A stretch of 64,000 bases of DNA from positions 29,059,621 to 29,123,620 of the forward strand of contig OY821784.1 of NCBI GenBank assembly GCA_963682175.1, in the 5' to 3' direction. Each line of letters begins with the position of its first letter. The first letter of the stretch is position 1. Below are positions 7,509 to 58,072 of this stretch, piece by piece. This stretch comes from Triglochin maritima (taxonomy: Eukaryota; Streptophyta; Magnoliopsida; Alismatales; Juncaginaceae). The notes below the pieces were generated by a model. That model was not told the DNA's origin and searched no databases. It saw only the letters and a list, made by a program, of their open reading frames with translations. A program made the translations under genes and the position numbers.

Positions 7509-7530
7509 AATACCCCCACACCTAACTTTT
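7509..7530 (-). promoter_or_regulatory. Polypurine tract next to the 3' LTR
   Basis: Read on the minus strand the sequence is AGGTGTGGGGGTATTT immediately before the LTR. This is the expected place and composition for the plus-strand primer of an LTR retrotransposon. Confidence 0.7.
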
Positions 7531-13327: not shown

Positions 13328-13333
13328 AAAACT

Positions 13334-22961: not shown

Positions 22962-22970
22962 ATTTCAATA

Positions 22971-23014
22971 GTAGTACGGACGCGCGCGTCCGTGACGTTT
23001 CTTACGTGGACGGT
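22971..23014 (+). repeat. Terminal inverted repeat, Ulp1 side, copy A
   Basis: It starts GTAGTACG directly after the 9-bp duplication and contains the palindrome GACGCGCGCGTC, then GTGACGTTTCTTACGTGG. The mate is at 33545-33594. Confidence 0.7.
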
Positions 23015-24065
23015 CAACTCAGCTGCCAGTTCAGCGTGCAGTCAGCCAAAACTTCTGCGCGGGGAAAAGTAAATTACGAATTATTGGGTGCGACGGTTCA
23101 TTTCCCGAAATCACGATTAGACGGTTAAACTTCACGTACATCATTAGCGGCACGACAACATTCGAGTAACTTTCCTCCCAAGTCTTCTCCTTTTCCATTC
23201 CCCATTTCAGCCGGAGTTCCTTTCCAGACGCTCATCCAAAACATTCATTCCTGTTTTAGTCGAACGAAAATTATAACCAGGCGAAAATGGATCCTTCTCT
23301 ACCTGAAACCTCCATCGCTCCTGAAATTGTAGCCGCGCAGGTGTTGTGTCAACCACGTTTTTTCTGTTTCATTTTAAGGTTCATTATTGGTCTCTAACAA
23401 TTTTTTTGGTGGTTTAAGGGAAGCACGTACTACTTCCGCAAAACCAAGTGCGGTTTCACGGCCCTTCACAAGCAGTTCGACCGGATGAAGGAGGAGGAGA
23501 AAAATGTCTTCCAACGGACGCCTTTCGGTCACTTCCTCTCCTTTCCTCACGTCACAACTGACAACGAGATACTGGGTTGGTTCGTCGAACACTTCGACGC
23601 CACTGAAGTCGGTCTGAGAATAGTCACTGCGGTGGTCCCATTTACGGTAGAAGACGTCGCCTTTCTACTTGGACTAAGAGCACATGGGCAGAGAGTGGAT
23701 ATGGAAGCAATGTACGTAGAGAAACGTGACGGGGTGAACCTCGACAACACCCAACTACTGGGTCATCTTACCGCCACGAGCAAGATGGGCGACGAGGAGG
23801 AGCACGTCTGACTCCTTATTTCTATGATTTTCAATCATTTTTTGTTCTTCGATGGATCACTGCGAAGTAAAGCGTGGTACACGAAGCACCTTAAGAACCT
23901 CAAGCGCCTCAAGAGATATGCGTGGGCAAAAACGGTTCACACTTTCTTGGTTGAAGGACTGGAGGAAGCCCAACGGGACCTCTCGAGGAGGAGATTGTAA
24001 GGGAACTTCTCTATGAAGCAGTGCTACGTGTATGGTTGCGTTGCCGTATTACAAGTAAGCATCTT

Positions 24066-24765
24066 GGTCCGGAATGAGTGTTGTGTCAGTCCGGAGTAGT
24101 GTTGGTTTATGTCCGGAATAAGTGTTTTGTCTGTCCGGGATAGGTCTTGTGTCTGTCCGGAATAGTGTTGTCTCTGTCCGGAATAAGTGTCTTGAGGTTA
24201 TCCGGGAAAAGTGTTACGTATGTCCGGAATAGTATTTTATCTGTCCGGAATAAGAGTTGCGTCTGTCCGGAATAAGTATATTGTCTGTCCGGAATAGTGT
24301 TGCGTCTGTCCGGAATAAGAGTTGCGTCTGTCCGGAATAAGTATTTTGTCTGTCCGGAATAGTGTTGCGTCTGTCCGGAATAAGAGTTGGTTTATGTCCG
24401 AATAAGTATTTTGTCTGTCCGGAATAGTGTTGCGTCTGTCCGGAATAAGAGTTGCGTCTGTCCGGAATAAGAGTTGTGTCTGTCCGGAATAGTGTTGCGT
24501 CTGTCCGGAATAAGAGTTGCGTCTGTCCGGAATAAGTATTTTGTCTGTCCGGAATAGTGTTGCGTCTGTCCGGAATAAGAGTTGGTTTATGTCCGAATAA
24601 GTATTTTGTCTGTCCGGAATAGTGTTGCGTCTGTCTGGAATAAGAGTTGTGTCTGTCCGGAATAGTGTTGAGTCTGTCCGGAATAAGAGTTGCGTCTGTC
24701 CGGAATAAGTATATTGTCTGTCCGGAATAGTGTTGCGTCTGTCCGGAATAAGAGTTGTGTCTGTC
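24066..24765 (+). repeat. Intron-borne GTCCGGAATAAG tandem array, copy A Ulp1 gene
   Basis: About thirty units of 18-24 bp, each holding GTCCGGAATA followed by AGAGTTGCGTCT, AGTATTTTGTCT or GTGTTGCGTCT, fill the second intron of the Ulp1 gene. Larger blocks of three to four units are themselves repeated. Confidence 0.9.
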
Positions 24766-25269
24766 CTGGGGAAGTTATGTTTCTGGTTTTTAACTCATTC
24801 ATGTTTTCAGGTGTGGCTTTGCGAGAAGTTCAAATTGGGGGATCCCCGGTCAGCATTTCCACGGTTCAAGTGTTGGACGGAAATGTTTAGCAGACGCCAA
24901 ATCCTTAGAAAATGGGAAGATCGAGACATCAACTTGTCCCGGATTTACTCGGGTCAATTTGAGTTGAAGGGCACCCCAAAACTCAGTGCACGGGAGCATT
25001 CACTGTTGTCAGAGGATCAATTTCCTACTGCAGAAGCAACTCCCGCAGCAAAGGTTGTCTTGAAGGAAACACCTTCAACATCCACTCTACCAAGGGTACA
25101 ACTCAGTGAATGCAGCATTCCATGTGACCCACTGCTACAAGAGTTGGAACTTAGTGAGGTGAAGACGAATTGGCTGCGAGCCGAAGCAGCACTTAGGGAG
25201 GCGACCGTTAAAATTAACAACCTGGAGGAAGAACTCCGGATCTCTCAAGAAGAGTGTCGTAGGCTGAGA

Positions 25270-25950
25270 GTCCGTGGGGAGGAGGAAGAGAGTGAAAAGA
25301 GGGAGGAGGAAGAGAGAAATAAGAGGGAGGCGGAGGAGAGGGAAAAGAGGGAGGAAGAGAGAAATAAGAGGGAGGCGGAGGAGAGGAAGAAGACAGAGGA
25401 GAAAAAGAGGGAGAAGAGAGAGGAGGAAGAAAGGAAGAAGAGGGAGGAGCAAGAGAAGAAGAGGGAGGATGATGAGAAGAGGAGGGAGGAGGATGAGAGG
25501 AATAAGATGGAGGAGGATGAGAAGAAGAGAAGGGAGGAGGATGAGAGGAATAAGAGGGAGGAGGATGAGAGGAATAAGAGGGAGGAGGATGCGAGGAAGA
25601 GGAGGGAGGAGGATGAGAAGAAGAGGAGGATGAGGAGGGATGAGGAAGAGAGAAAAAAACGGAGGGAGGAAGAGAGGAAGAAGAGGGAGGAGGATGAGAG
25701 GAATAAGAGGGAGGAGGAAGAGAAGAAGAGGAGGATGAGGAGGAAGAGAGAAAAAAACGGAGGGAGGAAGAGAGGAAGAAGAGGGAGGAGGATGAGAGGA
25801 ATAAGAGGGAGGAGGAAGAGAAGAAGAGGAGGGAGGAGGAAGAGAGGAATACGAGGGAGGAGGAAGAGAAGAAGAGGAGGGCGGAGGAGGAGGAGAGGAA
25901 CAAGAGGGAGGAGGAAGAGAAGAGGAGACAGCAGGAAAGAAAGAGGAAGG
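25270..25950 (+). repeat. Purine-only coding tract (Lys/Glu/Arg), copy A
   Basis: The sequence is almost entirely G and A on the plus strand, in GAG/AAG/AGG codons, and encodes the charged coil of the Ulp1 protein. Internal blocks such as GAGGAGGATGAGAGGAATAAG recur, so slippage and unequal exchange are likely. This is where copy A lost frame. Confidence 0.8.
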
Positions 25951-27101
25951 CTGTGGTATCGCTACCGCTTTTGCACCCTCAAAAAATGTGGACCATTAAA
26001 CCACGCTTGCGCACAGAACATATAGACGAAGCGCAAAGCAAATCTGGCCAAGATGAGGCACAGAAGAATGCCGCAGAACAACAAGAAGAAATAAAGGAGG
26101 CCGAAGAAGCCACCACAAAAACAAAAGGGGCCGAAGAAGCCAGTGAAGAAATATACGAGGCCGACGAAACAGCGAAAGATGAACTGGCCGCCCATGTTTC
26201 GTCCACGAGGCCCGATGTGGATGCGACCGCCTTGAGAACGCTGACCAATGATGAGGTACGTTGTTTATTGAATGCAACGGCTCCCGAACGAGAAGCCAAA
26301 TATATTATCTGGAGGGGTGGTCTGAGCAATATCCGCAGGGGTGATCTGAAGCAAATGATTTCGGCAAAAACAGAATTCACCAACGAAACTATTGATGGCC
26401 TAATTGAGGTACTCCTCAGAAGAGGAGGGCAACATAAGGTGGTCTGCTTATCATCCTTCGAATCGGAAATGATTGTGGAGGGACAGGGAGAAGATATAAG
26501 GAAAGATTATTTACTCCCAAATATTTAAGGAATAAATGTGGAGGAAGTCATCATCGCACAGCCATGCTGTTTGGCCGGCCACTGGACTCTGTTCGTTGCC
26601 CACGGACCTCGATCAGAGTTCATTCAGTACAACAGCCTCTCCCGCACACTTAAAAGAGGTGACAATCCTAACCGTTTAGTCGGAACTCATGAATGCACCG
26701 CGTCTAAGATAGCGGGATTCTGGCGAGGGTTGTTGAAGGTCGATTGACCGCTGAGAGTTGAGAGGAAGGGTAGCCAACGACAGCAACCGGGGAGTAACGA
26801 CTGCGGGCCATACGTTTTGTACTGGATGAAGCGTTTGATGGAGAATGCTGATCCGACTCAGCCGAAGCAGAGCAAGGTTATTCACAGTTTTAGAGGCGAT
26901 TTGGCCAATTTCTTACTCGAAGACTCTGGGATGTGCGATCAACAATAAACGACTCTGGATGTTTTAATTTTTTTTTACAAAGTTATACATGTATACATGT
27001 TAAAATTACATAGACTATTTGAATGATTTATGAATACAATGACATTTGGTGTTGGGTTAAATTATCAATACAAGGACATGTATAAATTATCAATACTCTT
27101 A

Positions 27102-30100
27102 AACCGGACAACAAATACACCTATTCCGGACAGCAAATACACTAATTCCGGACAACAAATACACTTATTCCGGACAGCAAATACACTTATTCCGGAAAAA
27201 ACTTAATGTTCCGTTTCTGGACAAAATTTATTCTTAAACCGGACAACAAATACACTTACTCCGAACAACAAATACACTTATTCCGGACAGCAAATACACT
27301 TATTCCGAACAACAAATACACATATTCCGGACAACAAATACACTTATTCCGGACAGCAAATACACTTATTCCTGACAAACTTTTTGTTCCGTTTCGGGAC
27401 ACACTTTATTCTTAAACCGGACAACAAATACACTTACTCCGAACAACAAATACACTTATTCCGGACAGCAAATACACTTATTCCGAACAACAAATACACA
27501 TATTCCGGACAACAAATACACTTATTCCGGACAGCAAATACACTTATTCCTGACAAACTTTTTGTTCCGTTTCGGGACACACTTTATTCTTAAACCGGAC
27601 AACAAATACACTTATTCCGGACAACAAATACACTTATTATGGACAGCAAATACACTTATTCCGGACAAACTTTTTGTTCCGTTTCGGGACACACTTTATT
27701 CTTATTCCGGACAGCAAATACACTTATTCCGGACAGCAAGTACACTTATTCCGGACAGCAAATATACTTATTCCGGACACACTTTATTCTTAAACCGGAC
27801 AACAAATACATTTATTCCGGACAACAAATACGCTTATTCCAGACAACAAATACACTTATTCCGGACAGCAAATACACTTATTCCGGACAAACTTTTTGTT
27901 CCGTTTCGGGACACACTTTATTCTTAAACCGGACAACAAATACACTTATTCCGGACAACAAATACACTTATTCCGGACAAACTTTTTGTTCCGTTTCAGG
28001 ACACACTTTATTCTTAAACCGGACAACAAATACACTTATTCCGGACAGTAAGTACACTTATTCCGGACACACTTTATTCTTATTCCGGACAACAAATACG
28101 CTTATTCCGGACAACAAATACGCTTATTCCGGACAACAAATACACTTATTCCGGATAGCAAATACACTTATTCCGGACAAACCTTTTGTTCCGTTTCGGG
28201 ACACACTTTATTCTTAAACCGGACAACAAATACACTTATTCCGGACAACAAATACACTTATTCCGGACAAACTTTTTGTTCCGTTTCGGGACACACTTTA
28301 TTCTTAAACCGGACAACAAATACACTTATTCCGGACAACAAATACACTTATTCCGGACAAACTTTTTGTTCCGTTTCGGGACACACTTTATTCTTAAACC
28401 GGACAACAAATACACTTATTCTGGACAGCAAGTAGACTTATTCCGGACAACAAATACACTTACTCCGATCACACTTTATTCTTAAACCGGACAACAAATA
28501 CACTTATTCCGGACAACAAATACGCTTATTCCGGACAGCAAATACACGTATTCCGAACAACAAATACACATATTCCGGACAACAAATACACATATTCCGG
28601 ACAGCAAATACACTTATTCCGGACAACAAATACACTTATTATGGACAACAAATACACTTATTCCGGACAAACTTTTTGTTCCGTTTCGGGACACACTTTA
28701 TTCTTAAACCGGACAACAAATACACTTATTCCGGACAACAAATACACTTATTCTGGACAGCAAATACACTTATTCCGGACAAACTTTTTGTTCCGTTTCG
28801 GGACACACTTTATTCTTATTCCGGACAGCAAATACACTTATTCCGGACAGCAAGTACACTTATTCCGGACAGCAAATACACTTATTCCGGACACACTTTA
28901 TTCTTAAACCGGACAACAAATACATTTATTCCGGACAACAAATACGCTTATTCCGGACAACAAATACACTTATTCCGGACAGCAAATACACTTATTCCGG
29001 ACAAACTTTTTGTTCCGTTTCGGGACACACTTTATTCTTAAACCGGACAACAAATACACTTATTCCGGACAACAAATACACTTATTCCGGACAAACTTTT
29101 TGTTCCGTTTCGGGACACACTTTATTCTTAAACCGGACAACAAATACACTTATTCCGGACAGTAAGTACACTTATTCCGGACACACTTTATTCTTAAACC
29201 GGACAACAAATACACTTATTCCGGACAACAAATACGCTTATTCCGGACAACAAATACACTTATTCCGGACAGCAAATACACTTATTCCGGACAAACTTTT
29301 TGTTCCGTTTCGGGACACACTTTATTCTTAAACCGGACAACAAATACACTTATTCCGGACAACAAATACACTTATTCCGGACAACAAATACACTTATTCC
29401 GGACAAACTTTTTGTTCCGTTTCGGGACACACTTTATTCTTAAACCGGACAACAAATACACTTATTCCGGACAACAAATACACTTATTCCGGACAAACTT
29501 TTTGTTCCGTTTCGGGACACACTTTATTCTTAAACCGGACAACAAATACACTTATTCTGGACAGCAAGTACACTTATTCCGGACAGCAAATACACTTACT
29601 CCGGTCACACTTTATTCTTAAACCGGACAACAAATACACTTATTCCGGACAACAAATACGCTTATTCCGGACAGCAAATACACTTATTCCGAACAACAAA
29701 TACACATATTCCAGACAACAAATTCACATATTCCGGACAGCAAATACACTTATTCCGGACAACAAATACACTTATTCCGGACAGCAAATACACTTATTCC
29801 AGACAAACTTTTTGTTCCGTTTCGGGACACACTTTATTCTTAAACCGGACAACAAATACACTTATTCCGGACAACAAATACACTTATTCCGGACAAACTT
29901 TTTGTTCCGTTTCGGGACACACTTTATTCTTAAACCGGACAACAAATACACTTATTCCGGACAACCAATACACTTATTCCGGACAACAAATACACTTATT
30001 CCGGACAAACTTTTTGTTCCGTTTCGGGACACACTTTATTCTTAAACCGGACAACAAATACACTTATTCCGGACAGCAAGTACACTTATTCCGGACAACA

Positions 30101-30430
30101 AATACACTTATTCCGGACACACTTTATTCTTAAACCGGACAACAAATACACTTATTCCGGACAACAAATATGCTTATTCCGGACAACAAATACACTTATT
30201 CCGGACAGCAAATACACTTCTTCCGGAAAAACTTTATGTTACGTTTCTGGACAAACTTTATTCTTAAACCGGACAACAAAGACACTTATTCTGAACAACA
30301 AATACACTTAATCCGGACATGGATGAATCGTAATCCGGACGGACATGGATGAATCGTAATCCGGACGGACATATAACGTAATCCGGACATACTTGTAACT
30401 TAATCCGGACATAAATACAACTTATTCCGG
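27102..30430 (-). repeat. Central tandem array of MULE copy A, about 3.3 kb
   Basis: The array is built from a 20-22 bp unit that reads TCCGGACAACAAATACAC on the plus strand; on the minus strand it begins GTCCGGAATAAGTGTATT. It lies between the 3' ends of the two MULE genes. A spacer containing TTTTTGTTCCGTTTCGGGAC and TTTATTCTTAAACCGGAC recurs and imposes a higher-order period. The first three higher-order units step by exactly 178 bp (27206, 27384, 27562). The frames that run through it are a by-product of the repeat, not genes. Confidence 0.92.
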
Positions 30431-30602
30431 ACAAACATACAACAAACCAAAATTACTTAAATATATTTGTCGTCATCAGAAATTAATTCACAAACGAACA
30501 AGCAAAGAAAGAGTTGAATCTTATGCAATAATACGGACAGACATACAATGACTTTCAACAAAATTACATAGGAATAATTACAACCAAGGACAAATACAAT
30601 AA

Positions 30603-33073
30603 TCAAGGAGGAACTCCCTCGTAATGCAAATTCATGTCCCAGTCATCGAAATCGTGATCCCCCGGTTTGGGTGCTGCAGGGTGTAACGGGGGTAGAACCT
30701 TATTCCTGATGATTTTCTTAACGTTACTTTTAATTATTTTCTCAGACAAAGAAATCCGTCGTTTGCTCGGCGGTCTGCCTTTCCGTCTTGCCTTATCCGG
30801 ATTGAGAACGGATGTACCATCGAACACAGGATCAGGTCGTTGCATACGTTCCTTAAGCAACTCAAGTGCCTCTACCGCCTGAAGATATCTGTCGTTTGAG
30901 TCGAAAGCGGCCTCGGCGATCCAAACCGCACGACCCATTATGTCGTCGTGGCGACGAAGCGCATCATTCCCCGTTATGCCACTTTGAAGGGGAAACTTGA
31001 CTCCATAGCTCCTTCAGATATCCTTCCTCCAACGGTGGACGATGTAAGACTCGGGGAGCAACGCGTTTGGACGTATTCGGGCAATAACAACATAAACGTG
31101 ACAACATAGGATGCCGACGTGATCAAACATTCTGCAATCGCATACCCACTTCTCATCTCTAATTTGCACTGTGAACCGTTTCGACAATGGGAGGATATGT
31201 GTCAATACATGTTCGGTCACGTTGAAGTGCAATGTGTCGTCCTCGTTGAACTCATCCTTGATGTCGCAGTACATCATCTTCCCAATTTCTAACTGCACCT
31301 TCTTAAAGACACCCACCGTATACAACTCGCCCAATTGCCTCTCGAATGGATATTTCGAAATCAATTGCGCAGCCTTATGCTCACAATCGAAATCAGACAG
31401 AGCTTCCTTCTCATACTTGTGGCGTACTGCGAGTTCGTATTGTTGAACGAACTGCTTAAGTGTCGTCCTTGATGTGAGGTACTTATCGAAGAAGGCGTTC
31501 ATACCCTCACTTCTCTGGGTTGATGTCATTCCTGCGGAAAAACAATCCCGCCAGAATGCAGGTACCCAGCGCTCTCGAATTGCATAAATGGATCGGAGCC
31601 AATTATTGTCGTGGAACTCGAAATCATATAGAAAACCCTGTCAATTCCGCTCGAATTCTGCCGGAGTCTTGGAATCGAATACACAGTTGTTGAGGTCAAA
31701 CAACGTATGCTCCCGGTACTTCGTGGGCAGCTTCACAGGGGCCTTATTCATTATGTGCCATATACAAAATCTGTGCCACGCTTTAGGGAACACAGTCCTC
31801 ACAGCCGCAGCTATGACGCCACATTGGTCTGTTATGATCGTCGGGGGGCTTGTATCTGCACACAACGCGATCAAGATAAAAACATATGTTAATCGGGACA
31901 AAAATAACGTAAACCGGACAGACGTCAAGGGTAAACCGGACGAGCAAAAAACGCAAACCGGACAGACGTAAGGGATAAACCGGACGAGCAAAAAACGTAA
32001 ACCGGACAGACGTAAGGGATAAACCGGACGAGCAAAAGACGTAAACCGGACAGACGTAAAGGGTAACCGGACAGGCACATAACGTAAAACGGACAAAGCC
32101 GGACAAAATAAAACACGTACCGTTCATGCACGTCAACCATGTTTGGAACAACCAAATGTAATTTTGTGTCGTCTCGGAAGAGAGGAGTGCGCAACCGAGT
32201 AGGACAGACTGGTAGTGGTGATTTACCCCCACAAATGGGGCAAAAGGCATGTCATACTTGTTTGTTATGTATGTTGTGTCGAAACATATTGCATCTCCAA
32301 AGTAAGAGTAAGCAGCTCGAGAACGACTGTCGGCCCAAAACACATTTCGAAGTGTGCCTTCGTCGTCCATATCCATTACGTAAAAGAAGCGGGAATCATT
32401 CTTCTGCATCCTGATGAAATAATCTTGGATAGCTTGCGCATCTCCTGGTCCCATTTTGAGGTTTCTAACCTCGTTCACAACATTCCTGCGAAACATAATT
32501 TTTATGACAAAGCTAAATGCGTAACTTCAACCAGGTTAAGTGGAGAATAAATAACGTTAGGTCCCGCTCGTTGAAAGACAATTTATCGTGACCTCCAGCT
32601 TCGACCACAAAAGATTGCATGGTCTTGGCGGCAGATATACCGACAGCATCATTGCACGAAATGCGTGCTCTGGCGGACTCCGGGACGGATCGTTTTTGTC
32701 GGAGGAAGCGCATCTGGTCTTCCGACAGCATGGCGTGGTTATGTTGGAGATCTACGTAGTTAATTACGTAGCCTCTGGATGGATTTCCGGAGACCCTGAT
32801 CCGAGCAGTGCACTCGACCCTACCGGATAACTTATGTTTTGGTCTACCTTCACCTTGGTTTCCCGGAGCATTACCCTCCTTGGAGCAAGTAAGAGTGGCC
32901 CGTATAACAACACCACGATCGTAATGAGATTGCCTTATCTTCACACCAAAACCACAGGAATCGGCATAGGAAACGTAAAATGCTTTGGCTTCTTCGAAGG
33001 AAGGAAAATACATCTTCTCTTGCGGGACGTTTGAGGCATGCACCGGCTGTGAGGACACATTAACGAGTGTCAT
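30603..33073 (-). pseudogene. FAR1-type MULE transposase of copy A, nonsense mutations
   Basis: The three exons have the same lengths as the open gene in copy B: 32556-33073 (518 nt), 32121-32485 (365 nt) and 30603-31855 (1253 nt). Exon 1 carries the FAR1 DNA-binding region (FPSFEEAKAFYVSYADSCGF, then GYVINYVDLQHNH). Exon 2 has CFDTTYITNKYDMPFAPF with the first catalytic Asp intact (codon at 32278-32280). Exon 3 has IITDQCG, the SEGMN Glu and the SWIM finger CDCRMFDHVGILCCH. Two stops break exon 3: TGG to TGA shortly after AEFERN (about 31640) and CGA to TGA after RWRKDI (31011-31013). Both are simple transitions, and the second fits CpG decay. Confidence 0.85.
31880..32098 (-). repeat. Tandem array in the second transposase intron, copy A
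   Basis: About nine units of 22-28 bp that read AAACCGGACAGACGTAAG or AAACCGGACGAGCAAAAAAC on the plus strand lie within the intron 31856-32120. The same intron in copy B (51691-51911) holds the matching array. Confidence 0.85.
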
Positions 33074-33254
33074 TACAGTACAGCAAAAAGGGAGGAAGAA
33101 GAAGGAAGGGTTCATAGGATCCGAATAAGGTAGCCAAAACATTTTGTATCTCCGTGAAGCGCCAAAAAAGAAGAAATGGAGGATGTGCTGATTTGAGGAG
33201 CATTAAATGCGATTGTGGACGTATCGGGAAAATAAAAGAAAAAGACAACATTCC

Positions 33255-33345
33255 GAAGTAAGTAGTACGCTTGTCCGGAATAAGTGTTCCAACTATGCGG
33301 ATTACATAGTAACTATGTCCGGAATGAGTCATGCGCTTGTCCGGA
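33255..33345 (+). repeat. GTCCGGAAT motifs inside the transposase-side end, copy A
   Basis: Several GTCCGGAATAAG-like words, in degenerate 20-30 bp spacing, lie upstream of the transposase start and inside the terminal repeat. Copy B has the counterpart at about 50420-50535. Confidence 0.65.
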
Positions 33346-33544
33346 AAAAAAGAGGAAAATGTGTAAAAAATTAGGTGACGTGAAACCCTAAGGGATCTTT
33401 AGTGGATCTCCGTTGAGCGCCAAAAGAAAAGGTGGTATCTCCGTAGATATGCATTTAATGCATGGGAAAGACAAATAAGAAAGACATCATTGCTCTGAGA
33501 AGCTTAGTGTACATGCTGACTGGATGCTGAATGGACAAAATTTC

Positions 33545-33594
33545 TCCGCCACGTAAGTAGCGTCAGTGACGCGCGCGTCTACTAAACATTTTCC
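33545..33594 (-). repeat. Terminal inverted repeat, transposase side, copy A
   Basis: Read on the minus strand it starts GGAAAATGTTTAGTAGACGC and continues GCGCGTCACTGACGCTACTTACGTGG. It matches the left end of copy B (GGGAAATGTTTGTTGAACGC) and, over the core, the other end at 22979-23010. Confidence 0.75.
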
Positions 33595-33747
33595 ATTTCA
33601 ATATCATCTCTTGCATTTAATGTTGGTGCGTTTAATGATGGTATTTTATTGTGCCCAATGCTTCTGATCACTCGTGATTGTAGAGAAATGCGAGTTTCCT
33701 TTGAAAACTCATTTTTACGTTGCTTTCATCAGAAAATTCCTTAACAT

Positions 33748-35768: not shown

Positions 35769-36119
35769 TAAAGTTTGTTACAAAATGAAGTCAAAGTGTG
35801 AAGTAGCAATTCAACGAGGAATTGAAACCTGAAATGAGTGAACATATGACCCTCTCACCACAGAATAATGACCCAATAAAATAAAGGGGTAGTTGACCTA
35901 GATATTATCATTGTGATGTATATTAAACTTGATTACGACATAAAGTTAAATCCTCCTTGTTTGGCTCACCAAAGAGTTCCTAAACCAACTATAGATTGAG
36001 CACAACTTGACGACGCCAACAATCGTCAAAAACATTGTAAGGCAATCAACCCAAAATAGTGGAAAGGAGAACATATCTAAATTAAGATTTAACAAACACA
36101 ACCACCGTGCATTAGACTT
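35769..36119. other. AT-rich spacer
   Basis: Nothing recognised between the transposase remnant and the ATTAG duplication of the next solo LTR. Confidence 0.4.
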
Positions 36120-43390: not shown

Positions 43391-43583
43391 ACAAACTACA
43401 GTAAAATTATGAAACTTGATTCCTCTTTGTGGAAATGATTGATCCAATCAATAATGTAGGCAGCAACAAAACAAGAGATGAGCCACAAGTCGAAGTACAT
43501 GAGATGTGCCACCAAACATATCAATTTATACAAATGCATCAGTTGCTTCCGTTTGCTGTATTGCCTTGTAAAGCAGATTAAAT

Positions 43584-46500
43584 TCAAAATACTGCTCTCA
43601 TAGCACCTCGTGCAGCTTCCTTCTTCATCTCTGCTTCTTTTCCACTTCCTCGGAAGTACATGTATACTTGCTGAAATATTGAAGGTAAAAAAAATTCAAC
43701 AAGCAATATAGTTACGAGAAATACAAACCAAAACAAAAGTTCATCGTCAGGCTTGGAACAAATTATGGAATTTAATCTCCAAGGATGAGTGAAAGAATGA
43801 TTACATTTTGCATACAATCAAACAAATTAATTGGGATAAATATAAAGTTTCAAATTATTTAATGTCAACGTTAGCATATAACTTGGAGGATTACTATCCA
43901 AAGAGATAGTCGTTAACCAAAAATAAAATAGTATTGAGATCAAATTTAAAATATATTCATGCTCAGAGAACATAGAACGGTATATTGCAAACAAATATAT
44001 AATAGAGATAAAGACAAACTCAGAATATTAGGAAAACACTCACCTGAATAACCCAAATGCTGACCAACGTCTCGATACAAAATAGTCCAAAACCAATGAA
44101 ATAGAATATCTGCAATTTGAAGGGTAATTCATTAAAAGAATAATCTGTTGACTTTCAGAAATTTTGATCTGCATTGTTTAAGTGTGAAAAAGAATCATTT
44201 ACTGTTAAAAAAAGAACATCAAAGTGTTGGCGTTATGTTAAATTATTGTTTTGTTAAGTCATTAGTAAGAACTATAATATTACTAAAAAATAAATTTAAT
44301 ATAATTTTTATAGATTTTCTAACACCGTTGGAAAAATGTGCAACGCTCTGATGGGTGGGTGTATATGCAACTATCAAGCAAATTTTACAAAATCACTGGA
44401 CAAAGATCTGGCGACTTTGTTTTTTATAGGTTCACCAGCATAAAAAACTTTTTAGAACAAGAACTACGAGGTCTAGTATTTCAAGTAAGAAACAATATTC
44501 AACTTTATAACATTCAAAAAGTACGTTGTCACTACCAACTACAAAAGCAAAGAGTAAGACACTCTTTTATACTTACTATATATAGTTTCAACAAAAAAGT
44601 AGAAAAGTTTTAATAGAAAAGTACAATATTATGTAATTTTCAAACATACATATCAAGTAACAAAAAATAAACATAGATATCAACTTACCCCAACCAAGAT
44701 ATGATCACTCATAAGACCAACTGCTGGCAAAATACCACTGTATACAAAAGGGGAGAGAACGAGTCACTCGCATAGTAAAAAAAAGGTAAAATTCGCATAA
44801 TACATTGCAAACTAGGAATTTTTATTTTTGCACATTCCATGATTTTGCGATATATTTTTTGAAAAATGTCATATAGAATTTTGCAAGAACTTACGTCAAA
44901 GAATTCCCATGGAAAATGATAGGAGGAGCCACACAAGAAAATATAACAAAGCCAATATGGATCTGCAAAAAAAGAGAAGTGACTGTCAGTGGAATGTGCT
45001 TACTAAAAGATAATCTTGAATTGCAGAGGGATAAGGAATCACTTACAAGGTAAAACAAGAAAAACCATCCAAATTTCAAAGCACTGTCAGTCCTGTCAAG
45101 TGTACAAAAGCACGAGTGAATTGCAAAATAGAAGAACTAAATTGTAAACGAGAAACACAATAAAGTATAAAATACAAACAAAACAGCAATAAAAATATGC
45201 ATTGCTTAACCTCATAGCATTGTAGAGAGGGCGATACCACAAGACATAAGCTCCAGGAACTCCCGATATAAAATAGATAATGGCAAGCAACCAGATAATA
45301 ACACCTGGTCCAAGAATAAAGAAGCATAAGTAGAAAAAACATTGAGATAATGACCAAGAAATGTGTGAAAATTGGGTTTGATTTTTGCAGCACCATATCC
45401 TTTGATCCAAGCTGTTGTGACTGCAATGATATTCCAAAAGAGACAAGCAACCAATCCTGTGAAAAATTCCATGCATGAGGATTAAAACATTTTATATATT
45501 AGATTAAAGAACAACTTTTCTTCAATAAGAAAATGATTTGAATAATTGAATTACTAGTAACTAGTAATTGTTATCATTTACGTAGTCTTGGATTTTAGCC
45601 TTTTAGTGATCAATCACACAGAGGCTAAACAATGACAAAAACCTTGGAAAACTTTAGTGTTGTTATACTTTTTTATTTTAGCCTTTGAGGCCATGAAAAG
45701 TACTTTAACCCTTAAAATAATCATTTAATGGACCATGTATAAACAAATGGTAAAGTATTATTTAACTCAATTAAGTAACTTACATTAAATTTGTCGGTGA
45801 AACATGCATACAATTTAGAAATGCAGGTATAGTGGTATACTGCCCAATACGTAGTGTCATGCACAATTCTACATAGTGAGGTTCTTAAATTCGACTCAGC
45901 ATACTCATTTAGCATGAGATTTACAGTGGTAGGGTTGCGTACATCTGACTCCCCCTTACCTCGCTTAGACGGGAGCCTCTTCTGAGGCATTGGGGTTATG
46001 TTGATGTTGATGTGATGTAGGCCATGAAAAGTACTTTAAACCTTAAAATAATCATTTAATGGACCATGTATAAACAAATGGTAAAGTAATATTTAACTCA
46101 ATTAAGTAACTTACATTAAATTTGTCGGTGAAACATGCATACAATTTAGAAATGCAGGTATAGTGGTATACTGCCCAATACGTAGTGTCATGCACAATTC
46201 TACATAGTGACGTTCTTAAATTCGACTCAGCATACTCATTTAGCATGAGATTTACAATGGGTTATAAATCTGTGTTTTCGGTCAAGTACATTTGGGTAGT
46301 AAATGAAATAAACAAAATTTTGTCATGAAACTAATGTTATAAATAGTGAGGAACAATTGACATACTTTACAATATAAACATTGTGTTGACACGAAGTGGA
46401 AAGTGCAAGAAAATAGAAGAACAATGATCAACATAGATCATTAAGTCAGTGGGGGTACTATAAGTAATGAAGGAAAACAAAGTTTATTTGTATTGAATAA

Positions 46501-50132: not shown

Positions 50133-50419
50133 GGGAAATGTTTGTTGAACGCTCGCGTCACGGACGCTGCTAACCCAGTCAGCACACTCGCTGATGTGGG
50201 CAACCCAGTCAGCAGACGCGGCTGAGTGTGCACTCTCCCCAGAAATATTTTTCCTTTCTTTGTTTAGTTTATTCCTCGTTTCGTACAAATTTCTCCATCC
50301 CTCATTAATGCGTCTCAAATCACTCACTTCATTTTGCCGCTCCTACACAGACTGAAGACTAGTTACTCAACATCTGTCCTCCTATTTTTTTCCCTTCTCT
50401 TTATTAATAAATTCATTTT

Positions 50420-50535
50420 TTTCCGGACACACACATCAGTCATTTTCTTTAGTTTCTGGACTAGCGCATAACTTATTCCGGACACAGTTACTATTTATTC
50501 CGGATAGTTAGAACACTTATTCCGGACAGACGTAC
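50420..50535 (-). repeat. TCCGGACA motifs upstream of the copy B transposase
   Basis: TTCCGGACAC, ATTCCGGACACAG, ATTCCGGATAG and ATTCCGGACAGACG lie between the terminal repeat and the transposase start, the same placement as 33255-33345 in copy A. Confidence 0.65.
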
Positions 50536-50737
50536 TACTTACTGTTGATTTTTTTTGCTGTTGTTTTATTTTCCCGATGCGTCCACCATCGCATTTAATG
50601 CTTTTCAAATCAGCACGTCCTCCGTCTTCTTTCTTATTCTTTGGCGCTTCACGGAGATACAAATATGAGTGTCTTGGTTATTCCGATCCTACGAACCATT
50701 CCTTCTTCTCTCCTTCCTCCATTTGTGTTGTACTGTA

Positions 50738-53164
50738 ATGGCACTCGTAAATGTGTCCTCACAGCCGGCTCATGCCTCCAACGTCCCTCAAGTGATGATG
50801 AATTTTCCTTCCTTCGAAGAAGCCAAAGCATTTTACGTTTCATACGCCGATTCCTGTTGTTTTGGTGTGAAGATAAGACAATCTCATTACGATCATGGTG
50901 TTGTAATACGGGCCACTCTTACTTGCTCAAAGAAGGGTAATGCTCCCGGAAACCAAGGTGAAGGTAGACCGAAACATAGGTTATCCGGTAGGGTCGAATG
51001 CACTGCTCGGATTAGGGTCTCCGGTAATCCATCCAAAGGCTACGTAATTAACTACGTAGATCTCGAACATAATTACGTCATGCTGTCGGAAGACCAGATG
51101 CGCTTCCTCCGACAAAAACGATCCGTCTCGGAGTCCGCCAGAGCACGCATTTCGTGCAATGATGCTGCCGGTATATCTGCCGCCAAGACCATGCAATCTT
51201 TTGTGGTCGAAGCTGGAGGTCACGATAAATTGTCTTTCAACGAGCGGGACCTAAGGTTATTTATTCTCCACTTAACCTGGTTGAAGTTACGCATTTAGCT
51301 TTGTCATAAAAATTATATTTCGCAGGAATGTTGTGAACGAGGTTAGAAACCTCAAAATGGGACCAGGAGATGCGCAAGCTATCCAAGATTATTTCATCAG
51401 GATGCAGAAGAATGATTCCCGCTTCTTTTACGTAATGGATATGGACGACGAAGGGAGACTACGAAATGTGTTCTGGGCCGACAGTCGTTCTCGAGCTGCT
51501 TACTCTTACTTTGGAGATGCAATATGTTTCAACACAACATACATAACAAACAAGTATGACATGCCTTTTGCCCCATTTGTGGGGGTAAATCACCACTACC
51601 AGTCCGTCCTACTCGGTTGCGCACTCCTCTCTTCCGAGACGACACAAAATTACATTTGGTTGTTCCAAACATGGTTGGCGTGCATGAACGGTACGTGTTT
51701 TATTTTGTCCGGCTTTGTCCGTTTTACATTATGTGCCTGTCCGGTTACCCTTTACGTCTGTCCGGTTTACGTCTTTTGCTCGTCCGATTTATCCCTTACG
51801 TCTGTCCGGTTTACGTTTTTTGCTCGTCCGGTTTACCCTTGACGTCTGCCCGGTTTACGTTATTTCTGTCCGGATTAACATATGTTTTTATCTTGATCGC
51901 GTTGTGTGCAGATACAAGCCCCCCGGCGATCATAACAGACCAATGTGGCGCCATAGCTGCGACTGTGAGGACTGTGTTCCCTGAAGCGCGACACAGATTT
52001 TGTATATGGCACATAATGAATAAGGCCCCTGTGAAGCTGCCCACGAAGTACCAGGAGCATACGTTGTTTGACCTCAACAACTGTGTATTCGATTCCAAGA
52101 CTCCGGCAGAATTCGAGCCGAATTGGCAGGGTTTTCTAGATGATTTCAAGTTCCACGACAATAATTGGCTCCGATCCATTTATGCAATTCGAGAGCGCTG
52201 GGTACCTGCATTTTGGCGGGATTGTTTTTCCGCAGGAATGACATCAACCCAGAGAAGTGAGGGTATGAACGCCTTCTTCGATAAGTACCTCACATCAAGG
52301 ACGACACTTAAGCAGTTCGTGAAACAATACGAACTCGCAGTACGCCACAAGTATGAGAAGGAAGCTCTGTCTGATTTCGATTGTCAGCATAAGGCTCCGC
52401 AATTGATTTCGAAATATCCATTCGAGAGGCAATTGAGCGAGTTTTATACGGTGGGTGTCTTCAAGAAGGTGCAGTTAGAATTTGGGAAGATGATGTACTG
52501 CGACATCAAGGATGAGTTCAACGAGGACGACACATTGCACTTCAACGTGACCAAACATGTATTGACACATATCCTCCCATTGTCGAAACGGTTCACAGTG
52601 CAAATTAGAGATGAGAAGTGGGCATGCGATTGCAGAATGTTTGATCACGTCGGTATCCTATGTTGTCACGTTTATGTTGTTATTGCCCGAATACGTCCAA
52701 ACGCGTTGCTCCCCGAGTCTTACATCGTCCACCGATGGAGGAAGGATATCCGAAGGAGCTATGGAGTAAAGTTTCCCCTTCAAAGTGGCATAACGGGGAA
52801 CGATGCGCTTCATCGCCACGACGACATAATGGGTCGTGCGGTTTGGATCTCCGAGGCCGCTTTCGACTCAAACGACAAATATCTTCAGGCGGTAGAGGCA
52901 CTTGAGTTGCTTAAGGAACATATGGAACGACCTCATCCTGTGTTCGATGGTACATCCGTTCTCAATTCGGATAAGACAAGACGGAAAGGCAGACCGCCAA
53001 GCAAACGACGGATTTCTTTGTCTGAGAAAATAATTAAAAGTAACGTTAAGAAAATCATCAGGAATAAGGTTCTACCCCCGTTACACCCTGCAGCACCCAA
53101 ACCGGGGGATCACGATTTCGATGACTGGGACATGAATTTGCATTACGAGGGAGTTCCTCCTTGA
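50738..53164 (+). CDS. FAR1-type MULE transposase, 711 aa, catalytic Asp replaced
   Basis: Exons 50738-51255, 51326-51690 and 51912-53164 join with GT-AG introns and correct phases into an open 712-codon frame. Domains in order: FAR1 DNA-binding region (about 24-115), MULE/DDE transposase core (about 200-420), SWIM zinc finger (C533, C535, C545, H547), and a C-terminal KGRPPSKRR patch resembling an AT-hook or nuclear signal (about 655-670). Of the DDE triad, the second Asp (IITDQCG, D304) and Glu (SEGMN, E411) are visible. The first reads Asn (CFNTTY, codon AAC at 51531-51533, residue 242), while copy A and the older remnant read Asp. Family knowledge says the enzyme cuts DNA at the terminal repeats with two metal ions held by this triad, so this protein may bind DNA but probably does not catalyse. 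The start ATG was chosen because it precedes the conserved VNVSSQP segment shared with copy A. Confidence 0.88.
51700..51880 (+). repeat. GTCCGGTTTA tandem array in transposase intron 2, copy B
   Basis: About eight units with GTCCGG followed by TTTACGTCTTTTGCTC or TTTACCCTTGACGTCT lie within intron 51691-51911. They are colinear with the array at 31880-32098 in copy A. Confidence 0.85.
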
Positions 53165-53324
53165 TTATTGTATTTGTCCTTGGTTGGAATTATTCCTATG
53201 TAATTTTGTTGAAAGTCATTGTATGTCTGTCCGTATTATTGCATAAGATTCAACCCTTTCTTTGCTTGTTCGTTTGTGAATTAATTTCTGATGGCGACAA
53301 ATATATTTAAGTAATTTTGGTTTG

Positions 53325-53830
53325 TCCGGAATAAGTGTATTTGCTGTCCGGAATAAGTGTATTTGTTGTCCGAAATTAGTGTATTTGTTGTCCGGTTTAA
53401 GAATAAAGTGTGTCCCGAAACGGAACATAAAGTTTGTCCGGAATAAGTGTATTTTCTGTCCGGAATAAGTGTATTTGTTGTCCGGAATAAGTGTATTTGT
53501 TGTCCGGTTTAAGAATAAAGTGTGTCCAGAAACGGAACATAAAGTTTTTCCGGAATAAGTGTATTTGATGTCCGGAGTAAGTGTATTTGTTGTCCGGAAT
53601 AAGTGTATTTGCTGTCCGGAATAAGTGTATTTGTTGTCCGGAATAAGTGTATTTTCTGTCCGGAATAAGTGTATTTGTTGTCGGAATAAGTGTATTTGTT
53701 GTCCGGTTTAAGAATAAAGTGTGTCCAGAAACGTAACATAAAGTTTGTCCGGAATAAGTGTATTTGCTGTCCGGAATAAGTGTATTTGCAGTCCGGAATA
53801 AGACTGCAATTAACGTCCGGATTACGTATC
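53325..53830 (+). repeat. Central tandem array of MULE copy B, about 0.5 kb
   Basis: Units read GTCCGGAATAAGTGTATTTG, with the spacer GTTTAAGAATAAAGTGTGTC plus CGAAACGGAACATAAAG recurring three times. This is the same unit and spacer as the 3.3-kb array of copy A, in the short form. Confidence 0.9.
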
Positions 53831-53968
53831 ATGATGGTCCGGAATTTTTTTTTTATAAAAACCCAACACCAAATGTCCTTGTATTGATAAATCATTCAAA
53901 TAGTCTATGTAATTTTAACATGTATACATGTATAACTTTGTAAAAAAAATTAAAACATCCAGAGTCGT

Positions 53969-56900
53969 TTATTGTTGATCGCACATCCCAGAGTCTTCGA
54001 GTAAGAAATTGGCCAAATCGCCTCTAAAACGGTGAATAACCGTGCTCTGCTTCGGCTTCGTCGGATCAGCATTCTCTATCAAATGCTTCATCCAGTACAA
54101 AACGTATGGCCCGCAGTCGTTACTCCCCGGTTGCTGTCGTTGGCTACCCTTCCTCTCAACTCTCAGCGGCCACTCGACCTTCAACAACCCTCGCCAGAAT
54201 CTCGCTATCTTAGACGCGGTGCATTCATGAGTTCCGACTAAACGGTTAGGATTGTCACCTCTTTTAAGTGTGCGGGAGAGGCTGTTGTACTGAATGAACT
54301 CTGATCGAGGTCCGTGGGCAACGAACAGAGTCCAGTGGCCGGCCAAACAGCATGGCTGTGCGATGATGACTTCCTCCACATTTATTCCTTCAATTTTTGG
54401 GAGTAAATAATCTTTCCTTATATCTTCTCCCTGTCCCTCCACAATCATTTCCGATTCGAAGGATGATAAGCAGACCACCTTTTGTTGCCCTCCTCTTCTG
54501 AGGAGTACCTCAATTAGGCCGTCAAGAGTTTCGTTGGTGAATTCTGTTTTTGGCGAAATTATTTCCTTCAGATCACCCCTGGTGATATTGCTCAGAACCC
54601 CCCTCCAGATAATATCTTTGGCTTCTCGTTCGGGAGACGTTGCATTCAATAAACGACGTACCACATCATTGGTCAGCGTTCTCAAGGCGATCACATCCAC
54701 ATCGGGCCTCGTGGACGAAACATGGGCGGTCAGTTCATCTTTCGCTGTTTCGTCGGCCTCGTATATTTCTTCACTGGCTTCTTCGGCCCCTTTTGTTTTT
54801 GTGGTGGCTTCTTCGGCCTCCTTTATTTCTTCTTGTTTTTCTGCGACATTCTTCTGTGCCTCATCTTGGCCAGATTTGCTTTGCGCTTCGTCTATATGTT
54901 CTGTGCGCAAGTGTGGTTTAATGGTCCGCATTTTTTGAGGGTGCAAAAGCGGTAGCGATACCACAGCCTTCCTCTTTCTTTCCCGCTGTCTCCTCTTCTC
55001 TTCCTCCTCCCTCGTCTTCTCTTCCTCCTCCCTCTTCTTCCTCTCCTCCCCCTTCCTCGTCTTCTCTTCCTCCGCCCTCCTCTTCTTCTCTTCCTCCTCC
55101 CTCGTATTCCTCTCTTCCTCCTCCCTCCTCTTCTTCTCATCCTCCTCCCTCCTTTTCTTCTCTTCCTCCTCCCTCTTATTCCTCTCATCCTCCTCCCTCT
55201 TCTTCTTCTCTTGCTCCTCCCTCTTCTTCCTCTCTTCCTCCTCCCTCTTCTTCCTCTCTTCCTCCCTCCGCTTTTTTCTCTCTTCCTCCTCCCTCCTCAT
55301 CCTCCTCTTCTTCTCTTCCTCCTCCCTCTTATTCCTCTCATCCTCCTCCCTCTTCTTCTTCTCTTGCTCCTCCCTCTTCTTCCTCTCTTCCTCCTCCCTC
55401 TTCTTCCTCTCTTCCTCCCTCCGCTTTTTTCTCTCTTCCTCCTCCCTCCTCATCCTCCTCTTCTTCTCATCCTCCTCCCTCCTCTTCCTCGCATCCTCCT
55501 CCCTTTTATTCCTCTCATCCTCCTCCCTCCTCTTCTTCTCATCCTCCTCCCTTTTATTCCTCTCATCCTCCTCCCTCCTCTTCTTCTCATCATCCTCCCT
55601 CTTCTTCTTCTCTTGCTCCTCCCTCTTCTTCCTTTCTTCCTCCTCTCTCTTCTCCCTCTCTTTATCCTCTGTCTTCTTCCTCTCCTCCGCCTCCCTCTTA
55701 TTTCTCTCTTCCTCCCTCTTTTCCCTCTCCTCCGCCTCCCTCTTATTTCTCTCTTCCTCCTCCCTCTTTTCCCTCTCTTCCTCCTCCCCACGGACTCTCA
55801 GCCTACGACACTCTTCTTGAGAGATCCGGAGTTCTTCCTCCAGGTTGTTAATTTTAACGGTCGCCTCCCTAAGTGCTGCTTCGGCTCGCAGCCAATTCGT
55901 CTTCACCTCACTAAGTTCCAACTCTTGTAGCAGTGGGTCACATGGAATGCTGCATTCACTAAGTTGTACCCTTGGTAGAGTGGATGTTGAAGGTGTTTCC
56001 TTCGAGGCAACCTTTGCTGCGGGAGTTGCTTCTGCAGTAGGAAATTGATCCTCTGACAACAGTGAATGCTCCCGTGCACTGAGTTTTGGGGTGCCCTTCA
56101 ACTCAAATTGACCCGAGTAAATCCGGGACAAGTTGATGCCTCGATCTTCCCATTTTCTAAGGATTTGGCGTTTGCTAAACATTTCCGTCCAACACTTGAA
56201 CCGTGGAAATGCTGACCGGGGATCCCCCAATTTGAACTTCTCGCAAAGCCACACCTGAAAACCGGAATGAGTTAAAAACCAGAAACATAACTTCCCCAGG
56301 ACAGACACAACTCTTATTCCGGACAGACGCAACACTATTCCGGACAGACACAACTCTTATTCCGAACAGACGCAACTCTTATTCCGGACAGACGCAACAC
56401 TATTCCGGACAGACAAAATACTTATTCCGGACAGACGCAACTCTTATTCCGGACAGACGCAACACTATTCCGGACAGACAAAATACTTATTCCGGACAGA
56501 CGCAACTCTTATTCCGGACAGACGCAACACTATTCCGGACAGACAAACTCAATACGTATTCCGGACAGACGCAACATTATTCCGGACAGACAAACTCTTA
56601 TTCCGGGCAGACAAAACTCTTATTCCGGACAGACAAAATACTTATTCCGGACAGACGCAACTCTTATTCCGGACAGACGCAACACTATTCCGGACAGACA
56701 AACTCAATACGTATTCCGGACATACGCAACAATATTCCGGACAGACAAACTCTTATTCCGGACAGACATAACTCTTATTCCGGACAGACAAAATACTTAT
56801 TCCGGACAGACACAATACGTATTCCGGACATACAAGATACTATTCCGGACAGACAAAATACGTATTCCGGACATACGTAATACTTTTCCCGGATAACCTC

Positions 56901-57751
56901 AAGACACTTATTCCGGACAGAGACAACACTATTCCGGACAGACACAAGACTTATCCCGGACAGACAAAACACTTATTCCGGACATAAACCAACACTACTC
57001 CGGACTGACACACCACTCATTCCGGACCAAGATGCTTACTTGTAATACGACAACACAACCATACACGTAGCCCTGCTTCATAGAGAAGTTCACTGACAAT
57101 CTCCTCCTTGAGAGGTCCCGTTGGGCTTCCTCCAGACCTTCAACCAAGAAAGTGTGAACCGCATTTGCCCACGCATATCTCTTCAGGCGCTTGAGGTTCT
57201 TAAGGTGCTTCGTGTACCACGCTTTACTTCGCAGTGATCCATCAAAGAACAAAAAATGATTGAAAATCATAGAAATAAGGAGTTGGGTGTTGTCGAGGTT
57301 CACCCCGTCACGTTTCTCTACGTACATGGCTTCCATATCCACTCTCTGCCCATGTGCTCTTAGTCCAAGTAGAAGGGTGACGTCTTCTACCGTAAATGGG
57401 ACCACCCCAGTGGCTATTCTCAGACCGACTTCATTGGCGTCGAAGTGTTCGACGAACCAACCCAGTATCTCGTTGTCAGTTGTGACGTGAGGAAAGGAGA
57501 GGAACTGACCGAAAGGCGTCCGTTGGAAGACATTTTTCTCCTCCTCCTTCATCCGATCGAACTGCTTGTGAAGGGCCGTGAAACCGCACTTGGTTTCGCG
57601 GAAGTAGTATGTGCTTCCCTTAAACCACCAAAAAAATTTGTTAGAGGCCAATAATAAACCTTAAAATGAACCAGAAAGAACGTGGTTGACACAACACCTG
57701 CGCGGCTACAATTTCAGGAGCGATGGAGGTTTCAGGTAGAGAAGGATCCAT
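53969..57751 (-). CDS. Ulp1/C48-type SUMO-protease-like protein carried by the MULE, 972 aa
   Basis: Exons on the minus strand are 57698-57751, 57040-57618 and 53969-56254. Both introns are GT-AG and the frame is open for 972 codons. The start ATG (57751) is shared with copy A. Exon 2 (about residues 19-211) resembles the plant-mobile-domain-like region of such proteins (FPHVTTDNEILGWF, PFTVEDVTLLLGLRAHG). Residues about 400-690 form a Lys/Glu/Arg coil with internal repeats. The C-terminal C48 domain has H851 (GHWTLFVAH), Q919 and C925 (QQPGSNDCGPYVLYWM), while the usual Asp of YDSL is Asn (N868). Family knowledge: Ulp1 enzymes process or remove SUMO. The role of this gene in MULEs is unknown. 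Intron 2 is filled by a tandem array, and the 3' end faces the transposase gene across the central array. Confidence 0.85.
54985..55795 (-). repeat. Purine-only coding tract of the copy B Ulp1 gene
   Basis: About 0.8 kb is almost only C and T on the plus strand, so only G and A on the coding strand. A segment of about 150 bp is duplicated in tandem (compare 55197-55330 with 55345-55480), which copy A has only in part. The duplication keeps the frame. Confidence 0.8.
56285..57030 (-). repeat. Intron-borne TCCGGACAGAC array, copy B Ulp1 gene
   Basis: About thirty-five units of 18-24 bp, each with ATTCCGGACAGAC on the plus strand, fill intron 2. It is the counterpart of 24066-24765 in copy A, in the matching orientation relative to the gene. 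Confidence 0.9.
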
Positions 57752-58072
57752 TTTCGCCTGGTTATAATTTTCGTTCGACTAAAACAGGAATGAAGGTTTT
57801 GGATGAGCGTATGGAAAGGAACTCCGGGTGAAATGGGGAATGGAAAAGGAGAAGACTTGGGAGGAAAGTTACTCGAATGCTGTACCGCCGCTAATGATGT
57901 ACGTGAAGTTTAACCGTCTAATCGTGATTTCGGGAAATGAACCGTCACACCCAATAATTCGTAATTTACTTTTCCCCGCGCAGAAGTTTTGGCTGACTGG
58001 ACGTTGAACTGGCAGCTGACTTGTCCGTCCACGTAGGAAGCGTCACGGACGTGCGCGTCCGTGTATAACTAC

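What the first reader, a model, noticed from the sequence alone, without database searches (positions are those of the whole stretch)
22962..58072. Two inverted copies of a two-gene MULE (transposase plus Ulp1) built around GTCCGGAATAAG repeats
Copies A and B share gene order, exon lengths (518/365/1253 nt in the transposase) and termini. In both, the transposase and Ulp1 genes converge. Ulp1-bearing MULEs are known, but here GTCCGGAAT-type repeats occupy four non-coding compartments in both copies: Ulp1 intron 2, the intergenic centre, transposase intron 2, and the region upstream of the transposase. This suggests a retained or self-propagating DNA feature of the element, not one chance satellite.
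Basis: partly seen in the sequence, partly recalled or inferred. Interest (0 to 1): 0.75.

Follow-up and report, generated by a model that had tools for sequence, protein, structure and literature searches.

The report
Transposon family carrying 22-bp motif arrays
These two jumping genes belong to a large plant family whose members keep long runs of one short DNA word in their non-coding parts, probably landing sites for a protein the element makes itself, much like a known plant trick for escaping gene silencing.

Summary
A (22971-33594, 9-bp duplication) and B (50133-58074) are inverted copies of a MULE: a FAR1-type transposase converging on a plant mobile domain (PMD)/coiled-coil/Ulp1-like gene. 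Arrays with a 22-bp period and core TGTCCGG(AA/TT)TAAG fill the four compartments named; 0 of the window's 113 exact units lie outside A and B.

In the home genome (1.06 Gb) GTCCGGAATAAG occurs 50,569 times (reversed control 8). Arrays are kept in 30 of 30 transposase loci (intron 2, downstream), 29 of 29 readable upstream regions and 30 of 30 PMD loci (intron 2). Gene-less derivatives keep them too.

A sister element has the same layout, but its three sampled compartments carry GTTCGG units (GTTCGGAATAAG: 23,828 sites) and its PMD is 55% identical. A third array type, GTCCTGTTTATG (4,267 sites), sits behind the same terminus as GTCCGG arrays.

Best reading: binding sites for an element-encoded protein, most likely PMD-Ulp1, working like Arabidopsis VANC anti-silencing. 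Binding and demethylation are untested. Not filed as VANDAL: it has TIRs, two genes, a FAR1-type transposase, and PMD instead of a direct DUF1985 match. New variant of a known kind.

The parts
22971..33594 (+). Element copy A (strand = Ulp1 gene)
   Evidence: 9-bp duplication ATTTCAATA on both sides (22962-22970, 33595-33603)
23287..26948 (+). A: PMD-coil-Ulp1 gene, broken; exons 23287-23340, 23419-24054, 24811-26948
24067..24766 (+). A: array in Ulp1 intron 2, 28 GTCCGG units, sense to Ulp1
27092..30438 (-). A: central array between the two 3' ends, 108 GTCCGG units, sense to the transposase
30603..33073 (-). A: transposase gene with 2 in-frame stops; exons 33073-32556, 32485-32121, 31855-30603
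31902..32095 (-). A: array in transposase intron 2, 9 GTCCGG units, sense
33273..33350 (+). A: upstream array, 3 units, antisense to the transposase
50133..58074 (-). Element copy B (strand = Ulp1 gene), no target-site duplication seen
   Evidence: ends by comparison with A and with L039/L040
53969..57751 (-). B: PMD-coil-Ulp1 gene, 972 aa, frame open; exons 57751-57698, 57618-57040, 56254-53969
   Evidence: PMD E 8.8e-10, Peptidase_C48 E 1.7e-5
56299..57027 (-). B: array in Ulp1 intron 2, 30 GTCCGG units
54997..55788 (-). B: 24-nt coding repeat, charged coiled-coil between PMD and C48 (A: 25277-25920)
53322..53830 (+). B: central array, 17 GTCCGG units, sense to the transposase
50738..53164 (+). 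B: transposase gene, 711 aa, frame open but Asn at the first catalytic place; exons 50738-51255, 51326-51690, 51912-53164
51716..51877 (+). B: array in transposase intron 2, 6 GTCCGG units
50417..50527 (-). B: upstream array, 3 units, antisense to the transposase

Best explanation
The arrays are a cis component of a MULE superfamily: dense, co-oriented binding sites for a sequence-specific protein made by the element, most likely the second gene's product (PMD, coiled-coil repeat, Ulp1-like domain). Its binding along introns, centre and upstream region would keep the element's DNA free of silencing marks, so that gene-bearing copies are expressed and gene-less copies stay open in trans, as VANC does for VANDAL elements in Arabidopsis. 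The transposase would act at the termini. Lineages whose protein diverges change the core word in their arrays together. Shown here: the arrays; their conserved place and direction; their retention without genes; a conserved core with a variable spacer and 22-bp phase; the switch of core in a sister element. Inferred: that a protein binds, which protein it is, and that the effect is demethylation.
For: Genome-wide 50,569 exact cores, reversed control 8. Arrays in transposase intron 2 and downstream in 30 of 30 loci and upstream in 29 of 29 that reach far enough; direction constant in intron 2 and upstream, one reverse unit in each of two downstream stretches; no GTCCGG in the coding exons of the 30. 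Ulp1 intron 2: 15-35 units in 30 of 30 PMD loci, one reverse unit in all. Gene-less elements keep arrays; in the first 1.053 Mb of C1 all 5 listed places of a terminal 22-mer follow a GTCCGG array. Sister element: same anatomy, GTTCGG units in the three compartments sampled (30 in intron 2, 4 at the cut-off start of the centre, 20 in Ulp1 intron 2), GTCCGG absent from both stretches, PMD 55% identical. The six unanchored core positions hold more information than the spacer in 8 of 9 arrays; consensus cores are more alike than spacers in 21 of 21 pairs. VANC sites lie in introns, intergenic and upstream regions, are co-oriented, form tandem repeats, differ between related families, and VANC has tandem peptide repeats (PMC5735166). 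Ulp1-bearing VANC genes are described in a review (PMC13317346, passages).
Against: No binding, methylation or expression data. PMD matched Pfam PMD, not DUF1985, the VANC domain; the only link is P0127, which matches the PMD profile (E 2e-11) and DUF1985 below Pfam's cut-off. In L074 spacer information equals or exceeds that of the core, as recent slippage would give. The anchoring on GTCCGG/GTTCGG inflates core agreement. A few GTTCGG units also occur in GTCCGG arrays (0-2 per Ulp1 intron 2; 4 exact in the window). The sister and the third lineage were read from one element each.
Confidence: 0.55

Rival explanations
1. The arrays are binding sites of the transposase, needed in cis for excision, like the subterminal repeats of CACTA elements (recalled).
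For: Gene-less elements keep ends and arrays together; the transposase has a FAR1 DNA-binding domain and also differs between lineages (exon 2 88%, exon 3 64% to the sister).
Against: The large arrays lie in introns and centre, not at the ends. Behind one terminus (190 bp, 98-100% identical) sit two different array types, 7 of 12 GTCCGG and 5 of 12 GTCCTG, so ends and arrays look like separate modules.
Confidence: 0.23
2. Neutral tandem repeats that grow by slippage wherever the element tolerates them and are carried along by transposition; no protein reads them.
For: Unit numbers vary much (centre 108 in A, 17 in B); coding repeats in the same element also expand; arrays are absent from exons, as tolerance would give.
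Against: Same core, period and direction in the same places in three lineages; spacers diverge while cores stay; separate compartments of the sister carry the same changed base; gene-less elements keep arrays.
Confidence: 0.14
3. The arrays act as RNA: in splicing, in transcription termination between the convergent genes, or as small-RNA source or decoy.
For: Both intronic arrays and the centre are sense to a gene in the elements read.
Against: The upstream array is antisense to the transposase, and gene-less elements without hits to the two proteins keep arrays.
Confidence: 0.05

Closest known systems
VANDAL21 and VANDAL6 with VANC anti-silencing proteins (Arabidopsis; PMC5735166 parts 1-3 of 6 and passages, PMC10398659 part 1 of 6)
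   Same: Short core in dense co-oriented tandem repeats in introns, intergenic and upstream regions; cores differ between related families; the VANC protein has variable tandem peptide repeats; the transposase is more conserved than the second protein.
   Different: Core GTCCGGAATAAG (22-bp unit) against YAGTATTAY or AGTTGT(C/A)C; PMD plus Ulp1-like domain against DUF1985; FAR1-type transposase, TIRs and two genes against non-TIR elements with VANA, VANB and VANC. Binding and demethylation are shown for VANC only.
Kaonashi and other Ulp1-bearing MULEs (PMC13317346, passages; melon, rice and grapevine elements cited there)
   Same: A MULE carrying a Ulp1/C48 gene besides the transposase.
   Different: Those are described there as non-TIR MULEs; here TIRs, a PMD part, and Asn at the usual Asp place of the triad in the three sequences seen.
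MULE-encoded PMD proteins (PMC5418596, passages)
   Same: PMD carried by a MULE; an anti-silencing use was speculated on there.
   Different: There PMD is fused to transposases, in grasses and Amborella; here it is in a separate gene with a Ulp1-like domain, next to arrays.
Gene-less elements hypomethylated in trans (AT9TSD1 under VANC6; PMC5735166)
   Same: An element not coding for the protein carries its motif.
   Different: AT9TSD1 is called unrelated to VANDAL; here gene-less elements share termini with the gene-bearing family. No methylation data here.

Membership tests
MULE (Mutator superfamily) | MULE transposase domain | tested here: met
   PF10551 E 3e-30; also FAR1 and SWIM
MULE (Mutator superfamily) | about 9-bp target-site duplication (recalled) | tested here: met
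   A, L039 and L040 have 9 bp; not seen in B, L041 and L042
MULE (Mutator superfamily) | terminal inverted repeats (TIR class) | tested here: met
   imperfect: A 34 of 57, L039 37 of 54, B 29 of 59, L040 22 of 70 alignment columns
VANDAL | non-TIR MULE with genes VANA, VANB and VANC | tested here: not met
   TIRs and two genes
VANC-type anti-silencing system | co-oriented motif arrays in introns, intergenic and upstream regions, kept across copies | tested here: met
VANC-type anti-silencing system | motif concentrated in the family's own elements | tested here: met
   0 of 113 outside A and B in the window; the five clusters read on C1 lie in elements, the sixth has the terminus. A sample, not the whole genome
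VANC-type anti-silencing system | related families have other motifs and a diverged protein | tested here: met
   sister element: GTTCGG, PMD 55%; one element read
VANC-type anti-silencing system | VANC protein with DUF1985 | tested here: inconclusive
   PMD hit above cut-off, no DUF1985 hit at E up to 1; link only through P0127
VANC-type anti-silencing system | tandem peptide repeats in the protein's variable region | tested here: met
   24-nt coding repeat, 26.6 copies in A and 32.6 in B
VANC-type anti-silencing system | protein binds the motif and removes DNA methylation | not testable with these tools
   needs gel shift or ChIP and bisulfite data
Ulp1/C48 protease | C48 domain | tested here: met
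   PF02902 25.2 bits, cut-off 20.7
Ulp1/C48 protease | His-Asp-Cys triad (recalled) | tested here: not met
   GHW...(Y/F)NS...NDCG in A, B and L075: Asn at the Asp place; activity unknown

The most novel reading that the evidence does not exclude
The PMD part of the element protein is a sequence-specific DNA-binding module, and this genome holds several self-addressed anti-silencing systems told apart by one or two bases in a 12-bp core (GTCCGGAATAAG, GTTCGGAATAAG, perhaps GTCCTGTTTATG), with gene-less elements that are little more than two ends and an address. VANC-like systems would then be an old and general feature of plant MULEs, not a peculiarity of Arabidopsis VANDALs.
Probability: 0.45. 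Interest if true: 0.85.

Novelty: new variant of a known kind. Interest (0 to 1): 0.68.

Why it matters
A 2021 review calls PMD a domain of unknown function (PMC8616336, passage), and a 2026 review says the role of Ulp1 in these elements is unknown (PMC13317346, passage). This family offers natural test pairs: sister proteins and sister cores differing at one base, tens of thousands of sites in one genome, and gene-less elements as ready-made reporters. If the mechanism holds, element-encoded, sequence-specific anti-silencing extends to TIR-MULEs outside VANDAL and gives new parts for targeted demethylation.

Tried and rejected
Chance repeat: rejected. One satellite that happened to fall into the elements: rejected for the sampled copies. 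Array-bearing transposase intron unique to this family: not claimed. Of 49 raw metagenome ORFs, 35 span its place and all 35 run straight through, but P0009 may have an intron there. First reading of P0003's tail as GTCCGG units (notebook): corrected to GTTCGG after reading L074. AlphaFold of the PMD part: mean pLDDT 45, not used, no fold search run. Selection: pN/pS among 30 loci is 0.26 for PMD exon 2, 0.71 for the start of Ulp1 exon 3 and 0.53-0.68 for transposase exons; the loci are the best-scoring ones, which lowers pN, so I draw nothing from it. The '0 stop-free' for transposase exon 3 arises because the reference includes the stop codon. Between A and B: transposase dS 0.064, dN 0.027; PMD part 0.037, 0.019; C48 part 0.014, 0.035. 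In one search I placed A's exon 2 one base off; its stops there are partly an artefact, and one search uses the right place. Script 71 ended in an error after most rows; only its printed rows are used.

Print: library searches (open-licence PMC only). None listed a PMD-Ulp1 MULE with arrays; 'plant mobile domain' with Ulp1 gave 0 papers; Mutator-like, FAR1, tandem repeat, anti-silencing together gave 0. Subscription papers are not covered.
Full report
What is there. The window lies in an unnamed 1.06-Gb genome (G000:C16:29059621-29123620), taken to be an angiosperm from its PMD genes. Copy A (22971-33594) is flanked by the 9-bp duplication ATTTCAATA; copy B (50133-58074) is inverted and shows none. 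Each has a transposase gene (FAR1, MULE, SWIM) and a convergent gene for a plant mobile domain, a 24-nt coding repeat (charged coiled-coil) and a Ulp1-like C48 domain. B's frames are open (711 and 972 aa), but its first catalytic Asp is Asn; of 25 copies readable there (of 30), 24 have Asp. A is broken in both genes.

The arrays. In both copies four non-coding compartments carry units with a 22-bp period. GTCCGG units in A and B: Ulp1 intron 2, 28 and 30; centre, 108 and 17; transposase intron 2, 9 and 6; upstream of the transposase, 3 and 3. Of 113 exact GTCCGGAATAAG in the window, 0 lie outside A and B. They are sense in both introns, sense to the transposase in the centre, antisense upstream.

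Family test. In the own genome the pattern occurs 26,731 + 23,838 times; read backwards, 5 + 3. The transposase search scored 61 places with exon 3, a lower bound. Of the 30 loci held, 30 have arrays in intron 2 (5-12 units) and in the 1.5 kb downstream (9-56 units); upstream, 29 of 29 that reach far enough (2-4 units; one locus stops short). None has GTCCGG in the aligned coding exons. The PMD search scored 150 candidates; 30 of 30 loci held have 15-35 units in Ulp1 intron 2. These are the best-scoring loci, so decayed copies are not sampled. Proteins of the same family in public data also read from exon into array: P0001 and P0126 (PMD), P0006 (transposase).

Are arrays elsewhere? The list gives the first clusters of C1, + strand: six. 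Five were read. L001 (continued in L075) is a gene-bearing relative. L039, L040 and L042 gave no hit to B's transposase, PMD or C48 proteins; in L041 one transposase fragment lies outside the array-bearing element. These four are gene-less elements with family ends, though the left end of L042 was not recognised. L039 (2383 bp) and L040 (1626 bp) have 9-bp duplications; L041 and L042 gave none. The sixth cluster was not read. A terminal 22-mer without GTCCGG occurs 374 + 359 = 733 times (control 0); its five places in the first 1.053 Mb of C1 follow five of the six clusters, and the remaining cluster is the gene-bearing L001.

Independent test by terminus. Of 40 places found with a 190-bp terminus, 12 were read 0.5-1.15 kb inward. 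Seven have GTCCGG arrays. Five have none, but another array with 22-bp unit AAAGTTTGTCCTGTTTATGTAG, core GTCCTGTTTATG. That core occurs 2222 + 2045 = 4,267 times (control 57); of its 13 listed C1 clusters with two or more units, 5 are followed by the exact terminal 22-mer.

Switch of the core. L041 also holds part of an element with a GTTCGG array. GTTCGGAATAAG occurs 11,930 + 11,898 = 23,828 times (control 349); in the stretch of C1 covered by both lists its clusters lie at other places than those of GTCCGG. From the spacing of two clusters at C1:135-138 kb I expected a transposase intron, exon 3, the centre, and a PMD exon a few kb on. The DNA shows exon 2 at 88% identity, 30 GTTCGG units in intron 2, exon 3 at 64%, the start of a GTTCGG centre (4 units before the stretch ends) and, in the second stretch, the PMD exon (55% to B, 97% to database protein P0003) with 20 GTTCGG units behind it. 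GTCCGG is absent from both stretches. A third lineage, L001/L075 (transposase 74% and 69%, its end 53%), has 17 units in intron 2, 50 in the centre with cores such as GTCCGGTTTACG, and a convergent C48 gene at 58%.

Core and spacer. In nine arrays from three lineages, the six core positions behind the anchor hold on average more information than the nine-base spacer in eight; L074 is the exception (my averages of the values printed). Over the 21 pairs of seven gene-bearing compartments, consensus cores agree at 82% and spacers at 57%, core above spacer in 21 of 21; the anchor (GTCCGG or GTTCGG) raises the first figure. Spacing is 22 in 216 of 308 intervals.

Interpretation. A 12-bp word kept in place, direction and phase, kept by elements without genes, and changed alike in separate compartments of a sister element, is what binding sites of a co-evolving protein look like. 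One terminus with two array types means that ends and arrays behave as separate modules, which argues for two readers: transposase at the ends, another factor on the arrays. In Arabidopsis VANDALs that factor is VANC, which binds co-oriented motif arrays in introns, intergenic and upstream regions and causes loss of methylation (PMC5735166, parts 1-3; PMC10398659, part 1). The second gene here has VANC's design: a conserved N-terminal domain, tandem peptide repeats and, as in Ulp1-bearing VANC genes (PMC13317346, passages), a C48 part. Its domain is PMD by Pfam and touches DUF1985 only through P0127. Ikeda et al. speculated on an anti-silencing use of PMD by MULEs (PMC5418596, passages). The step from anatomy to anti-silencing is inference.

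Limits.

Noticed in passing
26561-26840 (A), 54340-54060 (B); L075:2590-3000: The C48 domain has Asn at the usual Asp place of the triad in A, B and the third lineage (3 of 3 seen), so it is not decay of one copy; papain-type proteases use Asn (recalled).
   Followed up: partly
32120-31856 (A), 51691-51911 (B): Transposase intron 2, largely array, sits where 35 of 35 raw ORFs of other FAR1-type MULEs that span the place run straight through (49 examined); P0009 may have an intron there.
   Followed up: partly
genome G000: PMD exon 2 gives more scored places (150) than transposase exon 3 (61); both are lower bounds, but copies with the second gene and no transposase may exist.
   Followed up: no
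6108-14713: Direct repeats 6108-7508 and 13334-14713 (98% identical) look like the long terminal repeats of a retrotransposon inserted into another repeat (4896-5369 continues at 14713-15185).
   Followed up: no
3377-5370, 37372-39407, 58411-59557: Another repeat with a direct copy (92%) and an inverted copy (83-84%) in the window.
   Followed up: no
45688-46260: A 242-bp direct repeat at 98% identity.
   Followed up: no
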